Shown in pieces: positions 43,577 through 52,568 of a stretch of DNA of 64,000 nt. The notes under the pieces are model-generated. The model ran no database searches. It saw only the letters and a program-made list of their open reading frames with translations, and had not been told where the DNA came from. This DNA is from Polyangiaceae bacterium. GTDB lineage: Bacteria > Myxococcota_A > Polyangia > Polyangiales > Polyangiaceae. The stretch lies in assembly GCA_020846005.1 (NCBI GenBank), contig JADLEQ010000043.1:1-64000 (forward strand), in the 5' to 3' direction. Each line of letters starts with the position of its first letter. The stretch's first letter is position 1. Both the position numbers and the translations under genes were made by a program.

Positions 43577-43646
43577 CCGCCCGAACCACGCCGCGGGCGC
43601 GCCCCCGGTGGTCCCGCGCGCCCGGGGCCGCTATGCTCGCGCGACC

Positions 43647-45524
43647 GTGCGCACCTCCCCGCTCCTCGCCGTCGCGCTCCTCACCGGCCTGCTGGCCCCG
43701 CTCCCGTGGACGCTCGACCCCGCGCACGCCGATGGCGTCGCCACGCGGCCCGACGTGCTCCCCGTGTCCGAGGTGAAGCCCGGGATGAAGGGCTACGGGC
43801 TGACGGTCTTCGAGGGGACCCGCCCGGAGAAGTTCGACGTCGAGGTCATCGGCGTGCTGAAGACCTTCGCCCCCAAGCAGGAGCTCATCCTCGTCAAGAC
43901 GACGCACCCGCGCCTCGAGATCGTGAAGGTGGTCGCCGGCATGAGCGGCAGCCCCATCTTCCTCAACGGGAAGATGGCGGGCGCGTACGCCTACGGCTGG
44001 GGCTTCGGGAAGGAGCCGGTCGCGGGCGTGACGCCCATCCGCAACATGCTCGACGACATGGACCGCCCGCTGCCCAAGCAGCTCGACGGCTTCCCGATCA
44101 CCTTGCTGCCGAAGGGCAAGGCGGATCGTCGCTTCGCGCGGGCCGAGAGCCACGGGCGCTGGCGCGGTCGCCTCACCGACTACGACCCCAAGGAGCACGC
44201 CACCCAGCTCGCAGCGGCTCGCAAGCAGTCCGGCCCCGACGTGAGCAGCCCGTTCGCTCCGGTGGCGACGCCCCTGCTGGTCGGCGGGTTCAGCGCGAGC
44301 GCCGTCGAGCTGGCGCGCCAGCACCTGGCGCCGCTCGGCCTCGAGCCGCTGCAGGCCGGCGGCGGGGACGGCTCGACCGAGGACGACGCGCCGAAGCGCT
44401 ACGTGGACGGCGGCGCGGTGGGCGTGCAGCTCATCCGTGGCGACATGAGCGCCACCGGCCTCGGCACGGTGACGAAGGTCGAGGGCGATCGGCTGGTCGG
44501 CTTCGGCCACCCGATGATGCAGGCCGGCTACACGCTGATGCCGACCGCGGTCGGCCGCATCCTGTGGTTTCTCGCGAGCGACGCGCGGTCGTTCAAGATC
44601 GGGTACCCGGTGCGCAACGTAGGGGCGATGATCGGGGACCGGCAGTCGTCGATCGTGGTGTCGCACTCCGCGCAGGCGCCGGTCGTGCCCATCAAGCTCA
44701 AGGTGAAGGGTGTCCCGGGCGCGCCGTACACGGAGTGGAGCTTCGAGGTCGCGCACGAGAAGTTCATGGCGCCGATCTTCATGGCGATCGCGCTCGGCAG
44801 CGCCCTCACGACGACCGCCAGCGAGCGCATGGACGTCTCGTGGACGTCCCACAGCAAGCTCCGCGTAAAGGGGCACGGCGAGATCGCGCTCGAGGACTTC
44901 GGCGTCGCCGTCGGGGGGACGCCGGAGGCCGGCGAGATGTTCCGCACCAGCTTGATCCGGAACGTCGGCATGCTGCTGAACAACCCGTGGGAGCCGGCGA
45001 TCATCGAGAGCGCCGAGATGGAGATCGAGTTCCGGTACGCGCGCGAGATCCTGAGGATCAAGAGCGTCGAGTCGCTCGATCCCGAGCTCGAGCCGGGCGA
45101 GCCGGCGCGCCTGCGGATCACCTTCGTGCCGTGGAACGGCAAGGAGTTCACCAAGACGGTCGAGGTGCCGCTCGGCAAGGACCTGGCCGGGCAGATGGTG
45201 TCCCTCGCCGTGCAGCCCGGCTACATGCACTACCCCGACCTCCCCCAGCCGGACGACGTAGCGCAGCTGGTCAAGAACATGGGCGCCAAGCCGTTCCCGC
45301 CCCAGTCGGTCATCGTCAGCCACTCCCGTGGGGAGGCCGGCGTGACCTACAAGCAGCGCGTGGTCCGCAACCTGCCGCCGGGCGCCGTGGACGCGCTCCG
45401 CCCCTCCACGGGCGCCGAGGGCCCGATCGGCTTCACGCCGCTCGAGCGCACCATCGTCCCGATGCCCGCGTTCGTGATCGGCTGGGGCGGCGCCCAGGTC
45501 CGCGTCCGCCCCGTCGTGAAATAG
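43647..45524 (+). CDS. SpoIVB-type serine peptidase (family S55)
   Basis: 625 aa. The start at GTG 43647 gives a Sec signal (LLAVALLTGLLAPLPWTLDPAHA). The S55 domain of about 220 aa holds the catalytic Ser in GMSGSPIFLNGKMAGAYAYGWGFGK (Ser100/Ser102 region), then PVAGVTPI, the conserved block of SpoIVB peptidase. The remainder (about 230-625) has strands resembling an S55-associated C-terminal domain, including GFGHPMMQAGYT. Bacillus SpoIVB is PDZ-anchored and triggers SigK processing in spores; here there is no PDZ domain and no sporulation context is proven. Myxobacteria carry several S55 paralogues of unknown use. Confidence 0.82.
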   Translation: MRTSPLLAVALLTGLLAPLPWTLDPAHADGVATRPDVLPVSEVKPGMKGYGLTVFEGTRPEKFDVEVIGVLKTFAPKQELILVKTTHPRLEIVKVVAGMSGSPIFLNGKMAGAYAYGWGFGKEPVAGVTPIRNMLDDMDRPLPKQLDGFPITLLPKGKADRRFARAESHGRWRGRLTDYDPKEHATQLAAARKQSGPDVSSPFAPVATPLLVGGFSASAVELARQHLAPLGLEPLQAGGGDGSTEDDAPKRYVDGGAVGVQLIRGDMSATGLGTVTKVEGDRLVGFGHPMMQAGYTLMPTAVGRILWFLASDARSFKIGYPVRNVGAMIGDRQSSIVVSHSAQAPVVPIKLKVKGVPGAPYTEWSFEVAHEKFMAPIFMAIALGSALTTTASERMDVSWTSHSKLRVKGHGEIALEDFGVAVGGTPEAGEMFRTSLIRNVGMLLNNPWEPAIIESAEMEIEFRYAREILRIKSVESLDPELEPGEPARLRITFVPWNGKEFTKTVEVPLGKDLAGQMVSLAVQPGYMHYPDLPQPDDVAQLVKNMGAKPFPPQSVIVSHSRGEAGVTYKQRVVRNLPPGAVDALRPSTGAEGPIGFTPLERTIVPMPAFVIGWGGAQVRVRPVVK

Positions 45525-45590: not shown

Positions 45591-46556
45591 GTGTCGATCG
45601 AGCCGCCGGACGACGCGCGCCACGAGCCGGGCCCCGAGCGGCGATGGCAGGAGAGCTGGTACTTCAACTTCAGCGATCCACGGAGCGGGCTGTTCGGGCT
45701 CCTGCGGACGGGTCTGCGACCGAACGAGGGCCGGGCCGACGCGCTCGTCCTCACCGTGCTCGACGGCCGCCCGCACTACGTCTATCCGGGCGTCGGCTGC
45801 CGATACACGCCGGGGCGCTCGGACGACGTCGCCCGGGGGCTCCGGGTCGGGCGGCTCGACCTCCGCGCGGTCGAGCCCCTGGCGCGCTGGCAGCTCACGC
45901 TCCGCGGCGAGGACGCGCTCGACCTCGACTTCCGCTGCGTGGCTCCCCCGTACGACTACCCCGGGCGCGGCGCGGGCGCCGAGGGCTTCGCCTCTTCGAT
46001 GGCCGCGCGCCACTTTGAGCAGGTCGGCCACGTCAGCGGGTGGCTGCGCCTCCACGGGCGCACCTTCGAGCTCGACGGCTACGGCCAGCGCGACAAGAGC
46101 TGGGGCGTGCGCGACTGGACGACGCTCGCCGGGTGGGACTGGGTGAGCGCCCACTTCGGCCCCGAGCTCGCGCTCAACGTGCTCGAGGTGCGAGAGGGCG
46201 CGGGATCCCACGCCGCCGGGTTCGTGTGGGTCGACGGCCGCGTCGAGGCGGTCCGCGCGCACCGCCTCCGCTGGGACTGGGGGCGCCGGCCGCACGTTCC
46301 GGCGCGAGGCCGCCTCGACATCGAGACCGAGCGCGGTGACCGGCTCGAGGTCGAGGCCACCACGCGCGGCCGCTTCCCCCTGTACCGAGGCGGCGCGCTG
46401 CTCGAAGAGATCGCCGCGGACTACGTCGCGCGCCGAGCCGGGCGCACCTACCGTGGCACGGGTGTCCTCGAGCACGTGTGGCGGCCGCCGCTCGTCGAGC
46501 GCCTGCGGCGGGGCCCCGAGCTCGCGAGCGCGCTCCTCGGGGCGATGGCCGGATGA
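45591..46556 (+). CDS. lipocalin-like (AttH/CrtC/DUF7064-type) protein
   Basis: 321 aa, start GTG at 45591, no signal peptide. Beta-rich fold with the hallmark ELDGYGQRDKSWGVRDW, found in the tocopherol-cyclase/hydroxyneurosporene-synthase-like lipocalin superfamily, plus ESWYFNFSDP at the N-terminus and an end strand GVLEHVW. Members bind hydrophobic ligands or act as carotenoid hydratases; no substrate is evident. It overlaps the next gene by four bases (ATGA), so the two are translated together, which points to one function with the PEP-synthase/rifampin-phosphotransferase-like partner. Confidence 0.68.
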   Translation: MSIEPPDDARHEPGPERRWQESWYFNFSDPRSGLFGLLRTGLRPNEGRADALVLTVLDGRPHYVYPGVGCRYTPGRSDDVARGLRVGRLDLRAVEPLARWQLTLRGEDALDLDFRCVAPPYDYPGRGAGAEGFASSMAARHFEQVGHVSGWLRLHGRTFELDGYGQRDKSWGVRDWTTLAGWDWVSAHFGPELALNVLEVREGAGSHAAGFVWVDGRVEAVRAHRLRWDWGRRPHVPARGRLDIETERGDRLEVEATTRGRFPLYRGGALLEEIAADYVARRAGRTYRGTGVLEHVWRPPLVERLRRGPELASALLGAMAG

Positions 46557-49033
46557 GCTCGCGCGTGGTGCGGCTCGCCGCGGACACGCCGGCGCGGCGC
46601 GAACGGCTGGGCGGCAAGGCGTGCGGCCTCGTGCGGCTGCTCGCCGCAGGGCTCCCCGTGCCGCCAGCGTGGTGCGTCCCCGCGGACCTTCCGCTGGACG
46701 CCGAGCTCGAGGACGAACTCTCCGCGCTGTGGGCGAGCTGGGTCGCTCGCGATCCGATGACTCGCCTCGCGGTGCGGTCGTCCTCGCCCGACGAGGACGG
46801 CGAGACGGCGTCCGGCGCCGGAGTGTTCCCGACGGTGCTCGGTGTGCACGGCGCGTCGGCGCTCCACGCAGCCGTCCGGAGCGTGCGCGCCGGCGCGGAC
46901 ACGGCCGCGGCGCGCGCGTATCGCCGCGCCCGGGGGCTCGGCGCGGCGGGCCCGATGGCCGTGATCGTCCAGCACCTGGTCCGCGCCGACGTGGCCGGGG
47001 TGCTGCACACGGCGAACCCCCTCCGTCCCTTCGCGCGCGAGTACGTCGTCGACGCCGCGTGGGGGCTCGGCGAGGGCGTGGTGTCCGGGCGTGTCGATCC
47101 CGACCGCTTCATCCTCGATCCCGCGGGGCACGTGCGCGGGTTCCACCTCGGCGCGAAGGGGCACGCGGTGCGCCTCGGGGACGGCGGGCCCGAGGCGCAC
47201 CGCGTGCCGGCGGCGGACGGAGCGCGCGCCTGCCTCACCGCGGATGAGCTATGTCGCCTCGCTGAGCTCGGGCGCCGGGTCGACGCCCACGTCGGCGCTC
47301 GCGCAGACCTCGAGTGGGCGCTCGCCGGGGGTCGGCTCCACGTGCTCCAGCACCGCCCCATCGTGGGGCTCCCGCCCGCGACACCCCGCGTCGTGTGCTC
47401 GCGGCGCTTCGGGGATGAATACCTGGCTGGGTACGTGCTACCTCTCGGGCGGACGTTCCTGGTCCGGTGGATCCGCGACGTGACGTTCCACGACTTCGCG
47501 CGCCGGATCGGCCGCCGCGACCTGCTCGCCGTGGAGCCGCTCGAGCACCACGAGGGGTACGCCTACGTCCGGAGCGACTACGTGCTCTCGCTCGCGCGGG
47601 GCATTCCGCGAGCGGCGCGTCACGGGCCTCCCGCGGCGTGGTTCCCCGCGTCGTTCCGGCCGCGCCTCGCCGCCGAGCCCTTCGACCCGCTCGCGTGCGC
47701 TCGCTGGGCGCTCGCGCCGTGGCTCGAGCCCGGGGCGTCGCTGCTGGAGAACCCGCGGGCGCTCGCTGCGCACTGCGCGAGCATCGAGGCCGAGATCGCG
47801 CCCCGCCTCCGCGAGGAGCTCGGCGCGCTGTCGACCGACCGCTGGGAGCGCGAGCTCGACCGCGTCGACACGCTCGGCCGGGATCACTTCCGCGTGATCC
47901 GGTGGGGCATGGCGCACCACGGGCCGCTCCTGCACGCGCTCCTCGAGCGATGGCTCGCGAGCTGGGCCGGGGACGCCGACGGCTCACTCTACCACGCCGT
48001 CGTCGCCGGGCTCGGGGGGACCCGGACCGCCGAGGTGAACCGAGATCTGTGGCACCTCGGTCGACTCGCCCGCGACCACGGCGAGGCCAGCGAGCCGTTC
48101 TCCGAGGCGCTCGAGCGGTTCCTCGCGCGACACGGCCACCGCTCGTGCTCGCGAGAGATCTCCGAGCCGCGGTGGCGCGAGGCGCCAGACCTCGTGCGCG
48201 CGCTCGCGCGGACGCACGCCGCGGGGGGCGACCTCGCCCCGGACCCGGAGTCTCGCGCGCGTGAGGCGGCCGCTCGTCGCGACGCCGCCGAGCGCCGGAT
48301 CCTAGAGCGCGCGCGCGACCCCCTCCGGCGCGGGCTGATGCTGCGGTTGGCGCGCCTCGCGCGAGAGTACACGCGCTATCGCGAGGACCAGCGCTACTAC
48401 CTTGACTACGTGCTGTGTCACTGCCGTCGCCTCGTGCTCGAGATGGGCCGGCGGTTGGTCGCCGCCGGCGCGCTCGCCGAAGCGAACGACGTCTTCCTGC
48501 TCGAGATCGGCGAGCTCCGCTCCCTCGCGCGCGCCCCGCGCCGCGACGCGGCGCTCGCCGCGACGATCGAGGCTCGACGCGCCCACTGGCTGCGCCACCG
48601 GGACCGCCTCCCGGCGACGTTCCTCTACGACGGCGTCGAGACGGAGGGTGAGGGCGAGCCCGGCGAGACCTCCGGCGCGCCCGAGGGCACGGAGCGGTAC
48701 GTCGGCGTGTCGCAGGGCCGCGCCCGCGGGCCGGCGCGGATCGTCGTCGACGTGTCAGCGCTGGCGACGGTGCGTCCGGGCGACGTGCTCGTGGCGCCCA
48801 CGCTCGACCCCGCGTGGACCTCGGCGCTCGCAGTGGTGAGCGGCCTCGTCACGGAGACGGGCGGGACGCTGAGCCACGGCGCGGTGCTCGCGCGCGAGTA
48901 CGGCGTGCCCGCCGTCGCCGGCGTCCCCGGCGCGACCCGGCGCTTCGCGAACGGCGAGCTGCTCGAGCTCGACGGTGGGCGCGGGACGCTGCGGGCGGTG
49001 AGCGCCGCGGGGGGCGTCCCCGGGGGCGGCTGA
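46553..49033 (+). CDS. rifampin-phosphotransferase/PEP-synthase-like enzyme
   Basis: 826 aa. N-terminal ATP-grasp (PPDK_N) domain, about 1-290: GGKACGLVRLLAAGLPVP, RSSSPDEDGETASGAGVF, ADVAGVLHTANP, AAWGLGEGVVSGRVDPDRF and DLEWALAGGRLHVLQHRP. A helical middle region follows, including RYREDQRYYLDYVLCHCRR and EANDVFLLEIGEL. The C-terminal PEP-utiliser swivelling domain has the phospho-histidine His775 in GGTLSHGAVLAREYGVPAVAGV. There is no PEP/pyruvate TIM barrel, so the domain order matches rifampin phosphotransferase rather than PpsA. It should form a phosphohistidine from ATP and pass phosphate to an unknown acceptor, perhaps bound by the lipocalin-like partner. Confidence 0.78.
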   Translation: MSSRVVRLAADTPARRERLGGKACGLVRLLAAGLPVPPAWCVPADLPLDAELEDELSALWASWVARDPMTRLAVRSSSPDEDGETASGAGVFPTVLGVHGASALHAAVRSVRAGADTAAARAYRRARGLGAAGPMAVIVQHLVRADVAGVLHTANPLRPFAREYVVDAAWGLGEGVVSGRVDPDRFILDPAGHVRGFHLGAKGHAVRLGDGGPEAHRVPAADGARACLTADELCRLAELGRRVDAHVGARADLEWALAGGRLHVLQHRPIVGLPPATPRVVCSRRFGDEYLAGYVLPLGRTFLVRWIRDVTFHDFARRIGRRDLLAVEPLEHHEGYAYVRSDYVLSLARGIPRAARHGPPAAWFPASFRPRLAAEPFDPLACARWALAPWLEPGASLLENPRALAAHCASIEAEIAPRLREELGALSTDRWERELDRVDTLGRDHFRVIRWGMAHHGPLLHALLERWLASWAGDADGSLYHAVVAGLGGTRTAEVNRDLWHLGRLARDHGEASEPFSEALERFLARHGHRSCSREISEPRWREAPDLVRALARTHAAGGDLAPDPESRAREAAARRDAAERRILERARDPLRRGLMLRLARLAREYTRYREDQRYYLDYVLCHCRRLVLEMGRRLVAAGALAEANDVFLLEIGELRSLARAPRRDAALAATIEARRAHWLRHRDRLPATFLYDGVETEGEGEPGETSGAPEGTERYVGVSQGRARGPARIVVDVSALATVRPGDVLVAPTLDPAWTSALAVVSGLVTETGGTLSHGAVLAREYGVPAVAGVPGATRRFANGELLELDGGRGTLRAVSAAGGVPGGG

Positions 49034-50583: not shown

Positions 50584-50898
50584 TCAGCGTCGCCGGCGCG
50601 GCGCGACGAGGGCCTTCGCTGCGTGGCGCGCGAGCGACGGGAGCGCAGCGAGCGATCGAGTGAGCGAGAGCGCGAGGGCCAGCGGGGTCGTGCCGCGCGC
50701 CTCGATCGCGACCCGCTCGCCGCTCGCCACGTCCTCGAGCGCGCCGCGCGCTACGGTGCGGCTCCCATCGCTGCGGATCTCGACGATCATGCGCGCGACG
50801 ACCGGCGGATCCCCCGGTCGCTCCGCGAGCGTCGACGCGGGCCGGGGGCGCTCGACTTCCGTCGGTCCGGCGGGCGGGGTGCTCTCGGGCGAGCTCAC
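50584..50898 (-). CDS. small protein coupled to boxC
   Basis: 104 aa. GTG at 50898 overlaps the boxC stop (GTGA). After a Pro/Glu-rich N-terminus: VVARMIVEIRSDGSRTVARGALEDVASGERVAIEARG, a beta-strand pattern, then an Ala/Leu helix LALSLTRSLAALPSLARHAAKAL and a basic tail. No signal peptide, no known domain. The tight coupling suggests a role with benzoyl-CoA epoxide breakdown, perhaps assembly or membrane attachment. Confidence 0.6.
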   Translation of the reverse strand: MSSPESTPPAGPTEVERPRPASTLAERPGDPPVVARMIVEIRSDGSRTVARGALEDVASGERVAIEARGTTPLALALSLTRSLAALPSLARHAAKALVAPRRRR

Positions 50899-52568
50899 GT
50901 CCGCCGGTAGTCGAAGGCCGGGCGCTCGGGCTTGCCGTAGAGCGTGAGCGCGCCCTTCTCGCCCACCGCGTTGGGTCGCTGGAAGATCCAGTTCTGCCAC
51001 GCGGTGAGGCGGCCGAAGATCTTGGTCTCCATCGTCTCGGGTCCGGCGAAGCGCAGCGACGCCTCCATGCCCGTGAGCGCGTCCGGCGAGAACGCGGCGC
51101 GCTCCTCGATGGCGACGCGCACCTCGTCCTCCCAGTCGAGGTCGTCCGGCGTGAAGGTGACGAGCCCGGCTTCCCGGGCCGCGGCAGTGTCGAGCAGCTC
51201 CGTCCGATCGCGCAGGCGCTCGGCGAGCTCGGGGCGCGCGAGGAAGCGAGTCTGCAGCCGCGTGAGGCCGTTCGACATCGGGAGCGGGCCGAAGCTCATC
51301 GCCGAGAGCCCGAGCCGCGGGCCGGTGGCTGCGTCGAGCATGAACGAGCGATCTGCCGCCAGGACGAGCTCGAAGAGCGAGCCGGCGAAGCACGAGCCGG
51401 GCTCGATCACCGCGAACATCGTCCGCGCCGTGAGGTCGAGGCGCTTGAGCACGCGCTTCGTGTGGAGCACGATCTCGTTGGCGAACCAGTCCGTCTCGCG
51501 CGCCGCGAGGAGCGCGCGATCGCTAGCGCGGACGGCCTCCGGGTCGCCCGCCGTCTTCAGCACCAGGAGGCCTACCTCCTGGTGGTTGAAGCGCAGATCG
51601 AGGAGCGCGTCGTCGAGCTCTCGGAAGGCGCGGAGCGCCCACACGGACGATCCCGCGTCGCGCAGCGCCGCAGGAGTGGGCGGGGGCGGACCCTCGGGCG
51701 CGTGGAGCACGATCTCGGCCACGCGTCGCGCGCGGTCGATCGAGAGCCGGACGTGACGATAGACGATCTCGTCCCCCTCACGCCGCGGGTCGAGCGGCTC
51801 GAGCACCACGCCGGGGCCGGGCTTCTCCGCCGAGCGGGAGGCGAGCTCCGCCGCCGCAGCGCGCACGCGCTCGTCGAAGCGGCTCTTCGGCACGCTCTCG
51901 TCGACGAGGCCCCACTCGACCGCGCGTGCGCCCCGCACGCCCTCCGCCACCGTGCTGAACACGTCGGCGAGATCGCGGCGGACCTTGCGCTTGTCGACCA
52001 GGCGGGTGAGGCCGCCCGTGCCGGGGAGCACGCCGAGGAGTGGCACCTCCGGCAGGCTCACGGTGCTCGATCCGTCCTCGACCAGCAGGATCCGCTCGCA
52101 CGCGATCGCGAGCTCGTAGCCGCCGCCCGAAGCCGTCCCGTTCAACGCGGCGAGGCTCGGGACGTGCGACTCGGCCGCGAGCTCCTCCAGGTAGAGGCGG
52201 GTCTCGTTGGTGAACTTGCAGAAGTTCACCTTGAAGGCGTGAGACGACTTGCCCAGCATGTAGATGTTGGCGCCCGAGCAGAAGATCCGCTCACGCAGGC
52301 TCGTCACCACGAGCACGCGCACCTCGGGGTGCTCGAAGCGGACGCGCTGCAGCGCGTCCGCCAGCTCGATGTCCACGCCGAGATCGTAGCTGTTCAGCTT
52401 GAGCGAGTACCCGGGGCGGAGGCCGCCGTCGTCCGGGATGTTCATCACCAGACGCGCGAGGCGCCCGCCGCCGGGGAGCGCCTCGAACGAGAGCTGCCAG
52501 TGGCGATAGCGCGAAGGGTGGGTCTCGAAGCGGATCGGATCGAAGTCGACGGGGGAGTCGGTCGCCAC
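50895..52568 (-). CDS. boxC: benzoyl-CoA-dihydrodiol lyase
   Basis: 557 aa, the normal BoxC length. In the aerobic box pathway BoxC opens 2,3-epoxybenzoyl-CoA, yielding 3,4-dehydroadipyl-CoA semialdehyde and formate. Two enoyl-CoA-hydratase (crotonase) domains: the first has IFCSGANIYMLG and NGTASGGGYELAIACERI; the second holds FAVIEPGSCFAGSLFELVLAADR. The C-terminal block TAWQNWIFQRPNAVGEKGALTLYG is diagnostic. boxA and boxB (the epoxidase) are not in this window, so the pathway is split or elsewhere. It lies 99 bp downstream of the five-repeat Cys-rich lipoprotein gene on the same strand. Confidence 0.92.
   Translation of the reverse strand: MATDSPVDFDPIRFETHPSRYRHWQLSFEALPGGGRLARLVMNIPDDGGLRPGYSLKLNSYDLGVDIELADALQRVRFEHPEVRVLVVTSLRERIFCSGANIYMLGKSSHAFKVNFCKFTNETRLYLEELAAESHVPSLAALNGTASGGGYELAIACERILLVEDGSSTVSLPEVPLLGVLPGTGGLTRLVDKRKVRRDLADVFSTVAEGVRGARAVEWGLVDESVPKSRFDERVRAAAAELASRSAEKPGPGVVLEPLDPRREGDEIVYRHVRLSIDRARRVAEIVLHAPEGPPPPTPAALRDAGSSVWALRAFRELDDALLDLRFNHQEVGLLVLKTAGDPEAVRASDRALLAARETDWFANEIVLHTKRVLKRLDLTARTMFAVIEPGSCFAGSLFELVLAADRSFMLDAATGPRLGLSAMSFGPLPMSNGLTRLQTRFLARPELAERLRDRTELLDTAAAREAGLVTFTPDDLDWEDEVRVAIEERAAFSPDALTGMEASLRFAGPETMETKIFGRLTAWQNWIFQRPNAVGEKGALTLYGKPERPAFDYRRT

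What the first reader, a model, noticed from the sequence alone, without database searches (positions are those of the whole stretch)
45591..49033. Lipocalin-like protein coupled to a rifampin-phosphotransferase-like enzyme
The two genes overlap by ATGA. The enzyme has the ATP-grasp plus C-terminal phospho-His775 domain but no PEP/pyruvate barrel, the order found in rifampin phosphotransferase. The partner is a hydrophobic-ligand fold. A plausible hypothesis is that the pair phosphorylates a lipophilic small molecule or secondary metabolite held by the lipocalin. I know of no described system of this makeup.
Basis: inference. Interest (0 to 1): 0.65.

Follow-up and report, generated by a model that had tools for sequence, protein, structure and literature searches.

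The report
Kinase–lyase pair for ATP-driven dehydration
Two overlapping genes encode an enzyme that probably puts a phosphate on an alcohol and a partner that probably strips the phosphate off again to leave a double bond, an ATP-paid way to remove water from inert lipid-like molecules that was known only from anaerobic cholesterol breakdown, where a different type of kinase does the first step.

Summary
Gene A (45591-46556, 321 aa) and gene B (46553-49033, 826 aa) overlap by ATGA. B is a rifampin-phosphotransferase-like dikinase: ATP-grasp, a substrate domain, a C-terminal swivel with His775 and no pyruvate barrel. The RPH catalytic residues checked are kept or conservatively replaced. A has the predicted AttH/CrtC double-lipocalin fold, but it looks like an enzyme rather than a carrier. 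Its best sequence match among solved structures, and its best Foldseek match, is 25-phosphosteroid lyase, which eliminates phosphate from a tertiary phosphoester. A keeps the RDxSWG motif, whose Asp is Asn in the product-bound lyase structure. Close homologues of B lie beside an A homologue in all four genomes found (two phyla). A second, separate clade of dikinases sits beside DUF7065 proteins in nine Actinomycetota loci, in the opposite gene order. Other DUF7065/25-PSL proteins sit next to APH kinases, or beside a split dikinase. Best explanation: a two-enzyme, ATP-to-AMP-driven dehydration, in which B phosphorylates a (probably tertiary) alcohol on a lipophilic substrate and A eliminates phosphate to an alkene. 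The substrate is unknown. The pair is a new variant of a known kind.

The parts
45591..46556 (+). Gene A, 321 aa: DUF7065+DUF7064 protein, predicted phosphoester C-O lyase of the AttH/CrtC double-lipocalin superfamily, 25-phosphosteroid-lyase-like
   Evidence: Pfam PF23213 E 1.9e-22 and PF23212 E 5.5e-16; phmmer to PDB 9fzn 25-PSL E 1.4e-7, profile E 3.4e-11; AF2 pLDDT 91.5, top Foldseek hit 9g4c E 5e-14; VIA Z 24.6 to 25-PSL, within about 2 Z of AttH and pericyclases
46083..46115 (+). Motif G165-QRDKSWGVRD-175 of gene A; R167, D168, S170, W171, G172, R174 invariant; D168 aligns with the Asp that is Asn in 25-PSL structure 9g4c
   Evidence: Alignment of 31 homologues, RDxSW core found in the further DUF7065 genes listed, HMMER alignments to 9fzn/9g4c
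46553..46556 (+). ATGA overlap: start codon of B / stop codon of A
   Evidence: Sequence; same 4-bp overlap in L013 and L014, GTGA in L046
46553..49033 (+). Gene B, 826 aa: rifampin-phosphotransferase-like dikinase (ATP-grasp, substrate domain, C-terminal phospho-His swivel)
   Evidence: Pfam, NCBIfam relatives RPH/RedH/PigC below cut-off, AF2 pLDDT 87.3, top Foldseek hits 5hv1/5fbs RPH E 4e-39/3e-36, VIA Z 34.5
46616..46618 (+). Lys22 of B (ATP triphosphate lysine, RPH Lys22)
   Evidence: GGKA motif, conserved in the ATP-grasp-bearing relatives checked; role in RPH from PMC4844700
48380..48394 (+). R610-E611-D-Q-R614 of B, counterpart of RPH Arg666-Glu667-x-x-Lys670 (phosphoryl-transfer site)
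   Evidence: HMMER alignment to 5fbs, conservation, RPH mutagenesis in PMC4844700
48875..48877 (+). His775 of B, predicted phosphohistidine (RPH His825)
   Evidence: Alignment to 5fbs; invariant in 16 sequences and in all paired kinases that reach it

Best explanation
The pair is a two-enzyme ATP-dependent dehydratase. B is a swivelling dikinase. It moves the beta-phosphate of ATP onto His775 (releasing AMP and Pi) and then onto a hydroxyl, most likely tertiary, of a lipophilic, probably terpenoid- or steroid-like molecule. A binds the phosphoester in its double-lipocalin cavity and eliminates phosphate, with D168 and the neighbouring Arg residues as candidates for catalysis, leaving an alkene. 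Translational coupling would keep the two at matched levels so that an unstable, high-energy phosphoester is consumed at once. Spending two anhydride bonds may be the point of the dikinase: the APH-type 25-hydroxysteroid kinase is fully reversible, with an equilibrium constant below one, because tertiary phosphoesters are as energy-rich as ATP. Shown here: gene structure, predicted folds, conserved residues and recurrent pairing. Inferred: both activities, their order, and that the substrate is a tertiary alcohol. Unknown: the substrate.
For: (1) A's best sequence match among solved structures is 25-PSL, and so is its best Foldseek match; one entry holds phosphate plus the alkene product desmost-1,4-diene-3-one. 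(2) The RDxSWG Asp altered in that structure is kept in A and invariant across 31 homologues, including a true 25-PSL orthologue. (3) B keeps the RPH catalytic set: K22, R75, E289 (RPH Gln337), R610, E611, R614 (RPH Lys670), H775. (4) Pairing: all 4 close B homologues, in Myxococcota and Actinomycetota; a second clade of 9 Actinomycetota DUF7065 genes, all beside an RPH-like dikinase in reverse gene order; DUF7065 between the halves of a split dikinase in G217. Kinase and lyase trees each need at least two separate paired lineages or later losses. (5) Kinase-type swap: DUF7065 genes overlap APH kinases in G245/G255, and a 25-PSL orthologue (439 bits) neighbours an APH kinase in G196. (6) In G140 the pair is followed directly by two type II DMSO-reductase-family molybdoenzymes, the family that makes the tertiary alcohol in the known pathway (PMC8449060). 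(7) Thermodynamic rationale from PMC8449060.
Against: A is a remote relative of 25-PSL (about 20% identity; 97 bits against a cut-off of 150 for Rv3169_fam). By VIA-align it is no closer to 25-PSL than to AttH or the pericyclases, so another reaction of the same fold is possible. Twelve of 16 members of A's own subfamily have no dikinase beside them. G140 has about 25 such molybdoenzymes, which weakens the meaning of two beside the pair. The window genome has none of them at E 1e-60, no squalene cyclase and one P450, and its neighbouring genes suggest no pathway. Phosphate-binding residues of 25-PSL could not be compared in 3D. No activity has been measured.
Confidence: 0.6

Rival explanations
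1. A is a hydratase, isomerase or cyclase of the same fold (like kievitone hydratase, CrtC or Fsa2/CghA), and B phosphorylates or activates a different intermediate of the same pathway, for example as a condensing ligase like PigC/RedH.
For: Same-fold enzymes score as well as 25-PSL by VIA-align; B's best NCBIfam relatives include RedH and PigC alongside RPH.
Against: Sequence searches favour 25-PSL, not hydratases or pericyclases. The recurrent partner of DUF7065/25-PSL proteins is a kinase, of two unrelated types.
Confidence: 0.17
2. One reading: A only holds or presents a lipophilic molecule, and B phosphorylates it as the end product (trapping, detoxification or tailoring).
For: Fold suits hydrophobic ligands; RPH phosphorylates a hydrophobic drug.
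Against: RPH needs no carrier; the nearest characterised relatives of A are enzymes; the catalytic-motif Asp is invariant.
Confidence: 0.1
3. B is an antibiotic or xenobiotic resistance kinase (RPH-like) and A is an accessory immunity factor.
For: Overall RPH architecture.
Against: B is far below the RPH equivalog cut-off (274 vs 999 bits). In other genomes DUF7065-kinase loci sit with catabolic-looking genes: CoA-transferase, FAD dehydrogenases, ABC and TRAP transporters.
Confidence: 0.06
4. Reverse direction: A adds phosphate (or water) to an alkene and B recovers phosphate, making phospho-His or ATP.
For: 25-HSK is reversible and its phosphoester can phosphorylate ADP (PMC8449060); a homologous component (HpeH) transfers phosphate from product to acceptor (PMC12167813).
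Against: Dikinases of this family work towards phosphoester plus AMP and Pi; enzymatic addition of phosphate to an alkene is unknown to me.
Confidence: 0.04

Closest known systems
25-hydroxysteroid kinase / 25-phosphosteroid lyase tandem of Sterolibacterium denitrificans (PMC8449060, PMC11061730; PDB 9fzn, 9g2i, 9g4c)
   Same: Kinase plus phosphate-eliminating lyase; A is a remote homologue of the lyase with the same RDxSWG motif
   Different: The known kinase is a ~43 kDa monomeric phosphotransferase with a ternary-complex mechanism; here it is an 826-aa RPH-type dikinase predicted to go through phospho-His and to make AMP. No lyase candidate lies near the known kinase gene; here the two overlap. 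Substrate here unknown.
Rifampin phosphotransferase RPH (5fbs, 5hv1; PMC4844700)
   Same: Domain order, catalytic residues, no pyruvate barrel
   Different: 22-24% identity, diverged substrate domain, partnered with a lyase-like protein
Two-component phenol dikinases HpeHI, CreHI, PpsAB (PMC12167813)
   Same: RPH-like dikinases that phosphorylate a hydroxyl to start catabolism; ATP to AMP; split forms as in L126/L202
   Different: Act on phenols, followed by other chemistry; no DUF7065 partner described in the passages read
Prodigiosin/undecylprodigiosin ligases PigC/RedH
   Same: ATP-grasp plus C-terminal swivel domain profile matches
   Different: B scores 238-302 bits against cut-offs of 1300-1350; no lyase partner known to me
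AttH/CrtC-type double lipocalins: AttH 2ich, kievitone hydratase 7a0q, pericyclases Fsa2/CghA/Phm7
   Same: Fold; kievitone hydratase makes a tertiary alcohol on a prenyl chain (PMC5805349)
   Different: 11-16% identity; no kinase partner known to me

Membership tests
Rifampin phosphotransferase-like dikinases | ATP-grasp + substrate domain + C-terminal swivel, no PEP barrel | tested here: met
Rifampin phosphotransferase-like dikinases | Catalytic Lys22, Arg117, Arg666-Glu667, His825 | tested here: met
   K22, R75, R610-E611, H775 (roles)
Rifampin phosphotransferase (true RPH, equivalog) | Score over NCBIfam NF041857 cut-off | tested here: not met
   273.9 bits vs 999
Rifampin phosphotransferase (true RPH, equivalog) | Phosphorylates rifamycin C21-OH | not testable with these tools
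   -
PEP synthase / PPDK | C-terminal PEP/pyruvate barrel with central His domain | tested here: not met
   No barrel domain; His domain is C-terminal
25-phosphosteroid lyase / Rv3169 family | Score over NCBIfam NF053593 cut-off | tested here: not met
   97.3 bits vs 150; homologous but outside the family
25-phosphosteroid lyase superfamily (DUF7065/DUF7064) | Pfam DUF7065 + DUF7064 over gathering cut-off, same fold | tested here: met
   80.6 and 59.5 bits; Foldseek E 5e-14, prob 1.00 to 9g4c
25-phosphosteroid lyase superfamily (DUF7065/DUF7064) | RDxSWG motif with the Asp that is Asn in 9g4c | tested here: met
25-HSK/25-PSL ATP-dependent dehydration system | Kinase of the 25-HSK (~43 kDa phosphotransferase) type | tested here: not met
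   B is an ATP-grasp/swivel dikinase
25-HSK/25-PSL ATP-dependent dehydration system | Phosphorylation then phosphate elimination of a tertiary alcohol | not testable with these tools
   -
25-HSK/25-PSL ATP-dependent dehydration system | Preceding molybdenum C25 hydroxylase in the genome | tested here: not met
   None in the window genome at E 1e-60; relatives present next to the pair in G140

The most novel reading that the evidence does not exclude
A widespread, undescribed class of dikinase-driven dehydratases, with single-gene, split and ~1,500-aa two-swivel kinase forms. It uses two phosphoanhydride bonds to remove water irreversibly from tertiary alcohols of terpenoids or steroids, evolved separately from the APH-type kinase system and was paired at least twice with DUF7065 lyases.
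Probability: 0.45. Interest if true: 0.75.

Novelty: new variant of a known kind. Interest (0 to 1): 0.62.

Why it matters
It would give a first functional handle on Pfam DUF7065/DUF7064 and on a group of RPH-like 'PEP synthases' that databases misname. It also shows ATP-paid dehydration as a modular strategy (a kinase of one of two unrelated types plus a lipocalin-fold lyase) rather than a peculiarity of anaerobic cholesterol degraders. It suggests a simple reason for using a dikinase, namely the poor equilibrium of tertiary phosphoester formation, and it provides a testable enzyme pair for removing tertiary hydroxyls from terpenoids.

Tried and rejected
The pair as chance neighbours: rejected, since it recurs across two phyla with the same 4-bp overlap and, in another clade, in reverse order. 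A as a passive carrier: disfavoured (nearest characterised relatives are enzymes, invariant motif). B as PEP synthase: rejected (no barrel). Window genome as a sterol degrader of the known anaerobic type: no support (no type II molybdoenzyme at E 1e-60, no squalene cyclase, one P450). The other RPH-like genes of the same phylum that I fetched (L048-L064) had no DUF7065 neighbour, so pairing is a property of particular clades. Flanking window genes (SpoIVB-like protease, radical SAM protein, BoxC) gave no pathway clue. Literature searches on DUF7064 and Rv3169 gave nothing on function. I could not read a paper on the 25-PSL structure; only PDB titles and sequences were used.

Full report
OBSERVATION. 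Gene A (45591-46556) and gene B (46553-49033) are real, coding-like ORFs that overlap in ATGA. The first-listed start of B (46478) is only the longest ORF; the ATG at 46553 matches the starts of its homologues. B carries Pfam PPDK_N and PEP-utilizers and no pyruvate barrel; A carries DUF7065 + DUF7064, with Lipocalin_9 below cut-off. In the whole 5.7-Mb genome there is one DUF7065/Rv3169-type gene and two PPDK_N genes, one of which is B, so adjacency by chance is very unlikely.

WHAT B IS. NCBIfam puts B near RPH, RedH, PigC and 'PEP synthase' subfamilies but far below all their cut-offs. The AF2 model (pLDDT 87) matches RPH over the whole length (Foldseek E 4e-39; VIA Z 34.5 over 690 residues, with a high rmsd, as expected if the domains sit in a different relative position). 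From the HMMER alignment to 5fbs, the conservation table and the mutagenesis in PMC4844700, the RPH residues Lys22, Arg117, Gln337, Arg666, Glu667, Lys670 and His825 correspond to K22, R75, E289, R610, E611, R614 and H775 of B. The ATP half-reaction and the His-phosphate relay are therefore expected to work. The substrate domain has diverged.

WHAT A IS. phmmer against all solved structures gives 25-phosphosteroid lyase (25-PSL; E 1.4e-7; profile E 3e-11) and, weakly, AttH. The AF2 model (pLDDT 91.5) gives 25-PSL entries as the top five Foldseek hits, including 9g4c, solved with phosphate and the alkene product desmost-1,4-diene-3-one. VIA-align scores AttH, the pericyclases, 25-PSL and kievitone hydratase all at Z 24-27, so the fold alone does not fix the reaction; sequence favours 25-PSL. 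The RDxSWG motif, in which 9g4c has Asn for Asp, is invariant in 31 aligned homologues including a 25-PSL orthologue.

CONSERVATION OF THE PAIR. A scan of about 85,000 genomes with B found two relatives, an Actinomycetota MAG (L013) and a Deltaproteobacteria MAG (L014 = G140); both have A immediately upstream with the same ATGA overlap. That scan looks for short exact peptides, so it can miss relatives. A scan of 377 genomes of the phylum added G072, also paired, although there a contig end cuts B. A's own subfamily (416 bits or more, next tier 137 or less) has 16 members in the sampled genomes, 12 of them without B nearby. In 346 Actinomycetota genomes, a second clade of DUF7065 genes (9 of 9, supported 99/98) lies beside RPH-like dikinases in the order kinase-lyase, opposite to the window. 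In both the kinase and the lyase tree the paired genes fall in separate lineages; one ancient pairing with later losses is not excluded. In G217 a DUF7065 gene lies between two halves of a dikinase: ATP-grasp + swivel, and substrate domain + swivel. Three Actinomycetota kinases are about 1,500 aa; the two scanned have one ATP-grasp domain and two PEP-utilizers domains.

KINASE SWAP. DUF7065 genes of G245 and G255 overlap APH-family kinase genes by 4 bp. A true 25-PSL orthologue in G196 neighbours an APH kinase related to PDB 3ats and 9fsg. Two unrelated kinase types as partners of one lyase superfamily argue that what the partner supplies is a phosphorylated substrate.

MECHANISM. In S. denitrificans, a molybdoenzyme hydroxylates the tertiary C25, a kinase phosphorylates it and a lyase eliminates phosphate (PMC8449060, PMC11061730). 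That kinase is fully reversible with an equilibrium constant below one. A dikinase, which ends in AMP and Pi (AMP shown for homologous HpeHI, PMC12167813), would make the same step favourable; this rationale is my inference. In G140 the pair is directly followed by two type II DMSO-reductase-family molybdoenzymes related to ethylbenzene dehydrogenase, fitting that cascade, but that genome holds about 25 such genes. The window genome has none, so the alcohol there must come from elsewhere. I therefore commit to 'phosphorylation then elimination of an alcohol' (0.6) and leave the substrate open.

LIMITS.

Noticed in passing
L193:6481-11013, L194:330-4856, L199:6374-10846: Kinases of ~1,500 aa next to DUF7065 genes in Actinomycetota; L193 and L194 were scanned and have one ATP-grasp and two PEP-utilizers domains, and L199 matches B's C-terminal half twice: apparently one ATP site serving two swivel/substrate modules.
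   Followed up: partly
L126:3869-7582 and L202:3534-6034: Split dikinases flanking or beside DUF7065 genes; in L126 both halves carry their own swivel His domain.
   Followed up: partly
G140 (L014 contig and others): About 25 type II DMSO-reductase-family molybdoenzyme genes in one 6.5-Mb genome, an unusually large set.
   Followed up: partly
L124:7019-9225: 25-phosphosteroid lyase orthologue next to an APH kinase in Myxococcota, a likely kinase-lyase pair outside the known denitrifiers.
   Followed up: partly
L096, L097, L107, L108, L113, L122: Another DUF7065 clade sits beside a DctP-type (TRAP transporter) gene in six loci, with two further conserved downstream genes.
   Followed up: no
L013:101-1258 and L111:6057-7592: Alpha-L-fucosidase-family genes near two members of A's subfamily.
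   Followed up: no
window 50895-52568 (-): BoxC, 2,3-epoxybenzoyl-CoA dihydrolase, over its NCBIfam cut-off.
   Followed up: no
window 43608-45524 (+): Protein with a SpoIVB-peptidase (S55)-like stretch directly upstream of the pair.
   Followed up: no
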